From Terriglobia bacterium (GTDB lineage Bacteria; Acidobacteriota; Terriglobia; 20CM-2-55-15), in contig DASXLG010000288.1 in the NCBI GenBank assembly GCA_036496425.1, positions 1 through 47,105 of the forward strand: a stretch of 47,105 nt of DNA. Reading direction: 5' to 3'. The notes below the pieces were generated by a model. That model was not told where the DNA came from and searched no databases. It saw only the letters and a list, made by a program, of their open reading frames with translations. How positions within the stretch are numbered: the first letter of the stretch is position 1; the number at the start of each line of letters is the position of its first letter. Shown one piece after another: positions 19,030 through 23,459 of this stretch. Position numbers and translations under genes: made by a program.

Positions 19030-19476
19030 TCAATTGCTTAAAGATACAGCATCCCGTGCGCTCGTTACCCAGACCCTATTTAATACGATTTCCGGCTTTT
19101 GTAGGAACAGCGATCCTGTCACCTTACCGGTCGGGTTTGGTTTTTCGGCGGTGAAAAGTTCGGAAGCGGTGAACCAGTACAGCCCACCCGAATAGACCTC
19201 GGCCGAGGCTTGGCGCAGTTCTTCGGCCCACTTCGTGTCCAGCATTTCGATGAGCACGGCGCGGTTGCGGCCTTCAGGGCCTCCGGGGGGAAGCGCAGGT
19301 AAAGAAAGCATCAGGGCGGTGCGGCAGGAGTTCGCCAGTATCCAGATCCGCAACGCTGTTGTGCAGCTGCGCGCCTTGCTTCCAGGTGTCAACACTTCGC
19401 CTGCGCCCTTACGGACGCCGACGCATGACTCGGGGCCATCGTGACTGGCTGGGCCTTCGATGTAAGACTCTTTCAT
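19030..19476 (-). pseudogene. Composite debris: group II intron 5'-region-like sequence joined to an unknown coding remnant
   Basis: The first 30 codons (MKESYIEGPASHDGPESC and on to about 19387) are the familiar translation of the 5' domain I region of bacterial group II introns, with GGATAAACCGGCATGGAG just upstream. No reverse transcriptase follows. From about 19385 to 19300 another frame looks coding (VADLDTGELLPHRPDAF), and from about 19290 to 19030 this frame looks coding again (RNRAVLIEMLDTKWAEEL). I read it as a mosaic of an intron end and a frameshifted gene rather than one 148-residue protein. The intron call rests on recall of similar translations. Confidence 0.4.
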
Positions 19477-19739
19477 TCTCTACTCCATGCCGGTTTATCC
19501 CGGCGCACTGTCCCTTCGGCAAGCGTGCCTGATTCTTATAGAGGATGGGACGTATGCCACTTCGACAAGGAGACGATCGATATCCAGGGGTGTCGCTGAA
19601 AAACCTGTTGAACGCCAAACCCCGACATGTTTATGTAACGCATTTTTATAGGAGAAAAACCTACCGCCTCAGGCGCGCAGTCCCGTTCGGAATTACATAT
19701 ACATAAGGATGCATGCATCAGGAGAAGGATGGCTTCTGA

Positions 19740-20108
19740 CGGGAAATCGCTTTCTCCTGTCAGCAAATGGCAAGTGCTGATGTGGGAACGCCTCCGCACA
19801 TCAGCTGACGACACTTTCCCGTCAGCAGTTGGCAAATGCTGATGTGCGGAGCCGATTTCCCGCCAGCAGTTGGCAACTGCTGATGGGAAATTGGCTTCAG
19901 CTGATGTGGGAACGCCTCCGCACATCAGCTGACGGCATTTTCCCGCCAGCAGTTGGCAAATGCTGATGTGCGGAGCCGATCTCCCGTCAGCAGTTGTCAA
20001 CTGCTGATGAGAAATTGGCTTCAGCTGATGTGGGAACGCCTCCGCACATCAGCTGACGGTAATTTCCCGCCAGCAGTTGGCAAATGCTGATGTGCGGAGC
20101 CGATCTCC
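19740..20108. repeat. Tandem array of about three 124-bp units built from hairpins
   Basis: The segment CTGATGTGGGAACGCCTCCG recurs at 19777, 19901 and 20025, exactly 124 bp apart. Each unit holds a perfect 12-bp-arm hairpin (TCAGCTGATGTG / CACATCAGCTGA, loop 12), a 9-bp-arm hairpin (CAGCAGTTG-G-CAACTGCTG) and a looser CAGCA...TGCTG pair. The heptamer GCTGATG/CATCAGC thus occurs many times in alternating orientation. No protein frame is convincing. It lies directly before the first sigma54 promoter module. It could be a protein-binding array, a structured RNA, or a mobile repeat family. Confidence 0.85.
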
Positions 20109-20134: not shown

Positions 20135-20190
20135 GTCTACTCCGTCTACTGAAATCTACTCCAATCTACTGAAGTCTACGCAGAGTAGAC
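20135..20190 (+). promoter_or_regulatory. Upstream activator repeat, copy 1 (predicted enhancer-binding site)
   Basis: Five steps of about 10 bp, each beginning (G/A)TCTACT, end in the hairpin GTCTAC-N5-GTAGAC at 20174-20190. An almost identical block lies at 22931-22987. The last hairpin starts 49 bp before an IHF-like site and 92 bp before the -24 element, the distance expected for a sigma54 enhancer. Confidence 0.7.
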
Positions 20191-20222
20191 GGAACCCAGG
20201 CGCAACGCTGCTCCGAAAGGCC

Positions 20223-20235
20223 TAACTCGTTGATA
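20223..20235 (-). promoter_or_regulatory. IHF-like binding site, copy 1
   Basis: On the minus strand this reads TATCAACGAGTTA, a full match to the IHF consensus WATCAANNNNTTR. It sits between the upstream repeat and the -24/-12 promoter, where IHF bends DNA in sigma54 promoters. Confidence 0.6.
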
Positions 20236-20264: not shown

Positions 20265-20280
20265 CGGCAGCGCGATTGCA
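20265..20280 (+). promoter_or_regulatory. Sigma54 (-24/-12) promoter of the FN3 gene
   Basis: CGGCAGCGCGATTGCA matches the consensus TGGCACG-N4-TTGCW with GG and GC separated by exactly 10 bases. Transcription would begin near 20291, leaving a 5' leader of about 90 nt that contains a small TTCCAGC/GCTGGAA hairpin. Confidence 0.6.
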
Positions 20281-20381: not shown

Positions 20382-21035
20382 ATGTCAGTAAGTAAGGCGA
20401 AAGTGGTCACGATCCGGCCACTTGAAAGTTACAACAAAATGTCCGACGCGGATATTGTTCAGCGTGGGACAGCAGTTGTGACCGGTCTGACCGGGAATTC
20501 GAATTTTACGAGTTTGCCGGTCGATCTGGCGGCGCTGACGGCGGCTATCAGCAGTCTCTCGGCACTCATTGCGGAGGCTCTCGATGGCGGCAAGAAGGCG
20601 CTCGCTCAGAAAAACAAGCAACGGGAAACCGTCGTAAAAATGCTGAGGCTGTTGGGCCGTTATGTTGAAGTCAATTGCGATGGAGACATGGCGAAGTTCA
20701 CGTCCAGCGGATTTACGCCGGCTTCGACGACCAAAGTTCCAGCGGCGCCGTTGCCGTTACCGGTCATCCAAAGCGTCTACCAGGGCGCCATCAGTGGAGA
20801 ACTCGTAATTCAGATCCAGTCTATTTCGAAGGCTCTGAGCTATGAAATCCATTACGGTGTCCAGGTCAACGGCGGGCCGCCGGCCTCGGTGACGAGCAAG
20901 GTAGTCGCCAAGACCAGACCGCCCATTGGATTCCAGGGCCTGATGCCGGGCACTGTCTACGCGTTTCAAGTTCGCGCGCAAGGCAAGCTCGGTTTCACGG
21001 ACTGGACCGACTGGACGACGTGTATGGTCACATAA
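20382..21035 (+). CDS. Fibronectin type III domain protein of unknown function
   Basis: ATG 20382 follows a strong AAAGGAGG ribosome-binding site and defines a 217-residue protein; the longer open frame from 20244 would include the promoter. Residues 1-110 are helical (LTAAISSLSALIAEALDGGKKAL) and not recognised. Residues about 120-217 form a single FN3-like beta domain (SYEIHYGVQVNG, then LMPGTVYAFQVRAQGKLG). There is no signal peptide or membrane segment. It is the first target of a sigma54-type promoter module and is followed by a terminator, so it is transcribed alone. Its role may be structural or adhesive; this is not shown by the sequence. Confidence 0.7.
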   Translation: MSVSKAKVVTIRPLESYNKMSDADIVQRGTAVVTGLTGNSNFTSLPVDLAALTAAISSLSALIAEALDGGKKALAQKNKQRETVVKMLRLLGRYVEVNCDGDMAKFTSSGFTPASTTKVPAAPLPLPVIQSVYQGAISGELVIQIQSISKALSYEIHYGVQVNGGPPASVTSKVVAKTRPPIGFQGLMPGTVYAFQVRAQGKLGFTDWTDWTTCMVT

Positions 21036-22930: not shown

Positions 22931-22987
22931 GTCTACTCCGATCTACTGAAATCTACTCCAGTCTACTGAAGTCTACGCAGAGTAGAC
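22931..22987 (+). promoter_or_regulatory. Upstream activator repeat, copy 2
   Basis: This near-identical copy of the 20135-20190 block begins right after the stop codon of the enhancer-binding-protein gene. It has five (G/A)TCTAC steps at 10-bp spacing and ends in the hairpin GTCTAC-N5-GTAGAC at 22971-22987, 49 bp before the second IHF-like site. Confidence 0.7.
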
Positions 22988-23019
22988 GAACCGCGGCTCT
23001 TCATCCCGCCTTGCTCTTC

Positions 23020-23032
23020 TAACTCGCTGATA
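23020..23032 (-). promoter_or_regulatory. IHF-like binding site, copy 2
   Basis: On the minus strand this reads TATCAGCGAGTTA, one mismatch from the IHF consensus. Its spacing to the upstream hairpin (49 bp) and to the -24 element (43 bp) equals that of copy 1. Confidence 0.5.
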
Positions 23033-23061
23033 AATCACGTTCGGTTATTGCGCGCCGGTTT

Positions 23062-23106: not shown

Positions 23107-23289
23107 ATGACGATAGCGATGACAGTGACACAAGTGTCGGAATTGGCCGATGTCTCCAAGGCGCTGCTCGACCTGATGGAGGGCCTTGAAGACGCCGTCC
23201 AGCGATTGCTTCGAATCGTAGGCGATCTTGTCGGTCCGGCTTCACCGGATCCGAAAGACAACCTGAGAAAGGAGAAACCATGGACATAG
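23107..23289 (+). CDS. Small amphipathic protein, first gene of a sigma54-type operon
   Basis: This 60-residue protein begins at ATG 23107 after GAAAGGAG with good spacing. It is mostly one amphipathic helix (SKALLDLMEGLEDAVQRLL) with a charged tail and no cysteine or membrane segment. The stop lies 10 bases inside the next gene, so translation is coupled. I do not recognise the family. It depends on the predicted -24/-12 promoter and should be expressed with its partner. Confidence 0.65.
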   Translation: MTIAMTVTQVSELADVSKALLDLMEGLEDAVQRLLRIVGDLVGPASPDPKDNLRKEKPWT

Positions 23290-23459
23290 CAGAGCAACTC
23301 ATGGAGGTCCTCAGCAGGCTTGGCCGCATCGAAGGCCAGCTCATCGGCATCAACAAAGTGTCGGAGCGGGTCTCACGGCTGGAGATGTGGCAGGCCTGGC
23401 TGAAGGGCGGACTGTGCGCGGTTCTAGGCGCGTTCGGTTACCTGTTCAGAAAAGTGTAG
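23280..23459 (+). CDS. Holin/XhlA-like small membrane protein
   Basis: ATG 23280 follows AAAGGAG and overlaps the upstream gene by 10 bases. The 59-residue product has an N-terminal coiled coil (LMEVLSRLGRIEGQL, then VSERVSRLE), a WQAWLKGG turn and a C-terminal membrane helix ending GYLFRKV. This is the pattern of XhlA and related phage or bacteriocin holin accessory proteins. It could permeabilise or anchor to the membrane. Under sigma54 control with an unrelated small partner, it may be a release or signalling peptide and not a phage remnant. Confidence 0.65.
   Translation: MDIAEQLMEVLSRLGRIEGQLIGINKVSERVSRLEMWQAWLKGGLCAVLGAFGYLFRKV

What the first reader, a model, noticed from the sequence alone, without database searches (positions are those of the whole stretch)
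19740..20108. 124-bp-period array of nested hairpins upstream of the sigma54 cassette
Three units at exact 124-bp spacing contain a 12-bp-arm perfect hairpin, a 9-bp-arm hairpin and repeated GCTGATG/CATCAGC heptamers. The sequence between the repeats is conserved too, so this is not a CRISPR. It abuts the first promoter module. It may be a binding array for the activator or a structured RNA, or a repeat element related to the MITE-like units nearby.
Basis: seen in the sequence. Interest (0 to 1): 0.62.

Follow-up and report, generated by a model that had tools for sequence, protein, structure and literature searches.

The report
Period-locked private DNA arrays near promoters
In a group of uncultured soil Acidobacteria, dozens of copies of one small-protein gene have just upstream of their promoter a repeated DNA block whose letters differ at nearly every copy but whose rhythm is almost always about 20 letters (two turns of the double helix), which points to an undescribed protein-on-DNA control element; the block in the finding is one of them.

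Summary
The array is real: 2.7 copies of a 124-bp unit at 19765-20108, far beyond chance, unique in its genome and not found in 60 relatives as DNA. It is not an isolated oddity. The gene it precedes (Fn3-domain protein, 20382-21035) has about 50 paralogs in this gp5-acidobacterial genome and more in sister species. Of about 53 such loci with enough upstream DNA, 26 carry an upstream array, against 0.7 expected; 12 of 17 further loci in three sister species, fetched afterwards, do too. The arrays share no sequence, yet nearly all are quantised at 20.33 +/- 0.29 bp (20.0-21.0), built as 1x, 2x, 4x or 6x; the window's 124 bp is 6 x 20.67. Close paralogs keep their promoter module while their arrays share no detectable DNA. 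Between array and gene lies a textbook sigma54 promoter: 10-bp-phased TCTAC operators, IHF-like site, -24/-12. Changes in opposed arms are independent (54 double changes, 54.3 expected), and several arrays have no hairpin, so a structured RNA is unlikely. Best reading: a double-stranded-DNA lattice of protein-binding sites two helical turns apart, beyond the activator's own operators. The bound protein and the effect are unknown.

The parts
19733..19764 (.). degenerate leading part of the array
   Evidence: inverted and direct similarity to the units
19765..19888 (.). array unit 1 (124 bp = 6 x 20.67 bp)
19889..20012 (.). array unit 2, 90% identical to unit 1
20013..20108 (.). array unit 3, incomplete; array ends here
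19855..20057 (.). dyad axes at 19873, 19914.5, 19997 and 20038.5, spaced 41.5, 82.5 and 41.5 bp
20136..20195 (.). proximal operator block: TCTAC at 20136, 20145, 20155, 20165, 20175 and GTAGA at 20185 (about 10-bp phasing), likely enhancer-binding-protein site
   Evidence: recurs at 22932-22992
20223..20235 (-). exact IHF-consensus site (TATCAACGAGTTA on the minus strand)
20265..20280 (+). sigma54 -24/-12 element CGGCAGCGCGATTGCA
   Evidence: score 18.0 of 20.5
20382..21035 (+). gene of the expanded family: N-terminal helices plus Fn3 domain, 217 aa
21103..22929 (+). FHA-GAF-AAA+-HTH sigma54 enhancer-binding protein, 608 aa
   Evidence: PF00498, PF00158
22932..22992 (.). second copy of the TCTAC operator block, without any array upstream
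23019..23036 (.). second IHF-like box (CTAACTCGCTGATAAATC)

Best explanation
The array is a cis-acting double-stranded-DNA element: a lattice of binding sites for dimeric protein(s), one site about every 20.3 bp (two helical turns) on one face of the helix, often in alternating orientation so that the true repeat is about 41 bp. It lies upstream of the normal promoter parts (operators, IHF site, -24/-12) and probably forms a wrapped or looped nucleoprotein that sets access to or output of the promoter. Each locus grows its own lattice by tandem duplication of whole quanta from a local seed, so the words are private while the spacing is kept. Shown: existence, the common quantum, position, private sequence, faster turnover than the promoter, lack of pairing compensation. 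Inferred: that protein is bound, that it is dimeric, that transcription is affected. Unknown: which protein, and whether it activates or silences.
For: Repeated-word score over 61 loci peaks at -600 to -200 from the gene start: 40% of loci at or above 20 there, mostly 0-8% elsewhere. Autocorrelation of 24 arrays of unrelated sequence: nearly all share the ladder 20/21, 40/41, 60/62, 80/82, 120/124 (two weak ones, L071 and L088, do not). Fitted quantum 20.33 +/- 0.29 bp in 22 arrays, with no consistent excess at about 10 or 31 bp. 26 loci against 0.7 expected. Replication in other species: 12 of 17 new loci. Dyad symmetry in excess of shuffled units, mean z 2.9, axes often spaced 20.5 or 10.25 bp; loop-less palindromes enriched. 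Gap openings per mismatch 0.083 in arrays against 0.295 in promoter regions of paralog pairs. Paralogs 63-85% identical in protein keep the proximal module while their distal DNA has no match, except three recent copies. The array of one ortholog pair is conserved between species at about 82%.
Against: No binding or expression data exist. No adjacent gene encodes a constant candidate binder; the enhancer-binding protein lies next to only 7 of 61 loci. If sequence-specific proteins read the arrays, many different ones would be needed, or one that reads shape. Some arrays precede genes of other kinds. The second promoter module in the window has no array, so the element is not essential for that kind of promoter. 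About half of the Fn3 loci show no detectable array. The indel comparison is biased because array limits were set by rigid periodicity.
Confidence: 0.5

Rival explanations
1. Mutational by-product: a tandem-duplication process in this genus that copies in steps of about 20 bp, with no function, tolerated in the long intergenic stretches of this gene family, comparable to the rapidly forming tandem repeats of Borgs.
For: Sequences are private and turn over fast; a Borg intergenic repeat with 20- and 21-nt units is described (PMC9879509); some arrays precede unrelated genes.
Against: Off-ladder repeats found in 462 kb of random contigs were few, and the arrays concentrate upstream of one gene family's promoters; spacing is kept where unit sequence has diverged to 50-60% identity (L049, L053); one array is conserved across species.
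Confidence: 0.22
2. Long upstream enhancer made of many extra sites for the sigma54 enhancer-binding proteins themselves.
For: Position upstream of sigma54 promoters in about 14 loci; an enhancer-binding protein gene is next to 7 loci.
Against: The array words differ from the proximal operators, which are kept between paralogs while the array is replaced (L070 and L078 share operators but not arrays); many array loci have a different, ECF-like promoter.
Confidence: 0.13
3. Structured non-coding RNA or cruciform: the hairpins are the functional parts.
For: Perfect 9- to 12-bp hairpins in the window; dyads in many arrays.
Against: Double changes 54 observed against 54.3 expected if independent, and 261 single changes break pairing against 117 kept; L070, L078, L064 and L080 have no dyad excess; palindromes are largely loop-less; Rfam matches in the array are below gathering scores and to unrelated microRNA models; the array lies upstream of the predicted promoter.
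Confidence: 0.08
4. Substrate for recombination or duplication of the gene cassettes, as with repeats upstream of antigen genes.
For: The gene family is hugely expanded; a truncated cassette copy kept its array (L142 against L080).
Against: Arrays are private, so they cannot pair between loci.
Confidence: 0.05

Closest known systems
parC centromeres of ParMRC plasmid partition systems (20-bp repeats in pSK41, 10-11 bp in pB171 and R1)
   Same: Short tandem repeats in helical register, next to a promoter, sequence differing between systems, bound by a dimeric protein so that the DNA wraps into a solenoid (PMC9426499).
   Different: Dozens on a chromosome, no ParM/ParR gene seen beside the window's array, upstream of an Fn3 gene family, longer and often with alternating orientation.
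Plasmid iterons
   Same: Roughly 20-bp sites spaced by about two turns (own knowledge).
   Different: One replicon uses one iteron set and one Rep protein; here words differ at nearly every locus.
Sigma54 upstream activator sequences
   Same: Operators upstream of a sigma54 promoter with an IHF site; the window's TCTAC block fits this fully.
   Different: The array is an additional, more distal block with different words, and also occurs at non-sigma54 promoters.
Borg tandem repeats
   Same: Many arrays, nearly all unique within a genome, recent and fast evolving, partly intergenic (PMC9879509).
   Different: Borg repeats are described as perfect and about half lie in genes with lengths divisible by three; a common ~20-bp quantum or promoter link was not found in the passages read.
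REP/BIME palindromes
   Same: Extragenic palindromes of 20-40 bp (PMC3733652).
   Different: REPs are one sequence family scattered genome-wide; these arrays are private to each locus.

Membership tests
CRISPR array | unique spacers between repeats | tested here: not met
   the whole 124-bp unit is conserved, 90% between units 1 and 2
REP/BIME | one palindrome family scattered in many intergenic sites of the genome | tested here: not met
   no second copy in the genome
REP/BIME | linked RAYT transposase | tested here: not met
   single Y1_Tnp match in the genome, on another contig
MITE | dispersed copies with terminal inverted repeats | tested here: not met
   unique in genome
Structured RNA | compensatory base changes | tested here: not met
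   54 doubles against 54.3 expected
Structured RNA | match to a described family | tested here: not met
   no gathering-level Rfam match in the array
ParMRC parC | tandem repeats in helical register near a promoter | tested here: met
ParMRC parC | adjacent parM and parR genes | tested here: not met
   neighbouring genes of the window scanned against Pfam show none; ORFs below about 145 aa were not scanned
Plasmid iterons | Rep initiator and plasmid origin | not tested
   no Rep gene was sought
Sigma54 upstream activator sequence | upstream of -24/-12 with IHF site between | tested here: met
   met by the TCTAC block at 20136-20195; the array lies beyond it
Sigma54 upstream activator sequence | bound by the enhancer-binding protein | not testable with these tools
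   needs gel shift
Borg-type tandem repeats | perfect head-to-tail units | tested here: not met
   unit-to-unit identity mostly 50-95%

The most novel reading that the evidence does not exclude
A new class of bacterial cis-element in which the spacing, not the sequence, is what is inherited and selected: period-locked (about 20.3 bp), sequence-private lattices that are regrown at each copy of an exploding gene family and read by shape or by a matching set of proteins.
Probability: 0.35. Interest if true: 0.88.

Novelty: new variant of a known kind. Interest (0 to 1): 0.74.

Why it matters
If it holds, promoters can carry a long regulatory block defined by helical rhythm with free sequence, which motif searches would miss. 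It also offers a natural experiment: dozens of independent solutions to the same geometric demand in one genome, beside promoters whose other parts are textbook.

Tried and rejected
DNA search for the unit in own genome, 60 relatives and plasmids: nothing beyond the window; three weak hits were chance. Rfam 'evalue' hits to microRNA models: low-specificity pairing, rejected. RNA hairpin or cruciform: rejected on covariation and on arrays without dyads. Phased A-tract curvature: no significant 10.25-bp A/T periodicity (combined p 0.07); a 6.8-bp signal (p 2e-6) was not followed. Constant partner gene beside the arrays: none except the enhancer-binding protein at 7 loci. First indel count was invalid because the array aligned to itself; redone. 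Profile search with the 37-member alignment failed for lack of a conserved stretch; a six-member alignment worked. No phage or plasmid record in the collections encodes the Fn3 protein. Random sampling of about 250 kb from G004-G008, G011 and G047 found no ladder arrays, so outside the cassettes they are rare there. Literature searches on acidobacterial sigma54, Fn3 and palindromic repeats found no description of this element; open-access papers only.

Full report
The window has three copies of a 124-bp unit at 19765, 19889 and 20013, the last incomplete, scored 603 by Tandem Repeats Finder. The hairpins and heptamers are as described, with small corrections given under the observation check. 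The DNA occurs nowhere else in its genome and was not found in 60 relatives.

Surroundings. Between the array and the next gene lies a textbook sigma54 promoter: TCTAC repeats at 20136, 20145, 20155, 20165 and 20175 followed by GTAGA at 20185; an exact IHF-consensus site at 20223-20235; and CGGCAGCGCGATTGCA at 20265-20280. The gene (20382-21035) encodes a 217-aa protein with N-terminal helices and a fibronectin type III domain. The next gene encodes an FHA-AAA+ sigma54 enhancer-binding protein, followed by a second TCTAC block and IHF-like box at 22932-23036 with no array. The IHF and sigma54 consensus sequences used are from general knowledge.

Family. The Fn3 protein has 51 matches in its own genome, 25 in G004, 7 in G002, 7 in G003 and 2 in G001, all of one genus, with only one weak match outside the genus in the relatives tested. 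Named relatives are Acidobacteria gp5 soil metagenome-assembled genomes. I fetched 60 further loci and read upstream of each gene.

The arrays. Many loci have a long block of repeated words upstream, and the words differ from locus to locus. A score for repeated 8-mers peaks between -600 and -200 from the gene start. The direct-repeat lags of 24 such blocks fall, with two weak exceptions (L071, L088), on one ladder of multiples of 20 to 21 bp. The fitted quantum is 20.33 +/- 0.29 bp in 22 arrays. The largest period is 1, 2, 4 or 6 quanta; the window's 124 bp is six. In 462 kb of random contigs, six regions passed the same threshold; of these L130, L134 and L142 are parts or remnants of the same kind of cassette, and at least one other appears to be coding sequence. 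The excess at cassette loci is 26 against 0.7 expected, about 53 loci having at least 400 bp upstream. The threshold was chosen before the sister-species loci were fetched; 12 of those 17 new loci carry ladder arrays, some with a quantum of 21 (L190-L192 repeat earlier loci and are not counted).

Evolution. Paralog pairs with 63-85% protein identity mostly share the promoter-proximal DNA where both flanks are available, but not the distal array; only L056, L061 and L068 share distal words. One ortholog pair between two species (L101, L187; proteins 91% identical) keeps its array at about 82% identity and an 80-bp period. So arrays persist for a time and are then replaced.

RNA or DNA. In arrays with dyads, changes in opposed arms are independent (54 doubles, 54.3 expected) and 261 single changes break pairing against 117 that keep it. 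Four arrays have no dyad excess at all. Palindromes are largely without loops, and the array is upstream of the sigma54 promoter. These speak for double-stranded DNA. The two-turn quantum without a one-turn signal fits a protein dimer's footprint better than phased A-tract bending. Spacing is kept better than sequence: 0.083 gap openings per mismatch against 0.295 in promoter regions of paralogs, with the caveat that array limits were set by rigid periodicity.

Mechanism. The most likely reading is a lattice of protein-binding sites on one face of the helix that shapes the upstream DNA, distinct from the activator's operators. What binds and what it does are not shown. Arrays also precede ECF sigma-factor genes (L073, L105; named from their sequence by eye) and other genes (L055, L060), so the element is not tied to sigma54 alone. 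The main rival is a neutral duplication process with a 20-bp step.

Comparison. parC centromeres (20-bp repeats in pSK41; repeats that differ between plasmid systems; DNA wrapped into a solenoid; PMC9426499) are the closest working analogue; membership fails because no parM or parR gene was seen beside the array. Borg repeats (PMC9879509) are the closest analogue for many private arrays in one genome. I file the element as a new variant of phased operator or tandem-repeat arrays and state the stronger reading separately.

Noticed in passing
window 19357-19471 (-): Fragment of a group II intron (Rfam RF02005, 63.6 bits, aligned mostly to the first part of the model) inside a dubious 148-aa ORF.
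   Followed up: no
genome G000, 51 places: Genus-restricted explosion of Fn3-domain small proteins (51 matches in a 6.2-Mb genome), function unknown.
   Followed up: partly
L048, L051, L059, L060, L064, L066, L073, L074, L085, L099, L105: Loci without sigma54 elements have other promoter-like motifs: GGGGGTC plus GTTGTA/GTTATATAAG (ECF-like), or GATTTACAnAGTATGGGG.
   Followed up: partly
L105 and L073, about 1-2 kb upstream of the Fn3 gene: Ladder arrays directly upstream of ECF sigma-factor genes, suggesting that the regulators of some cassettes carry the same element.
   Followed up: no
L142 14700-15500: Internally deleted copy of the L080 cassette: array and gene end kept, most of the gene lost.
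   Followed up: no
window 23280-23459 (+): 59-aa ORF after the second promoter module with a coiled-coil-like start and hydrophobic end; resembles XhlA-type holins by eye, not tested.
   Followed up: no
   Followed up: no
L050, L067, L069, L079, L091: Several Fn3 genes lie within 160 bp of a contig end on their upstream side, so arrays may break assemblies and be undercounted.
   Followed up: no
arrays: A/T content shows a 6.8-bp periodicity in several arrays (combined p about 2e-6), unexplained.
   Followed up: no
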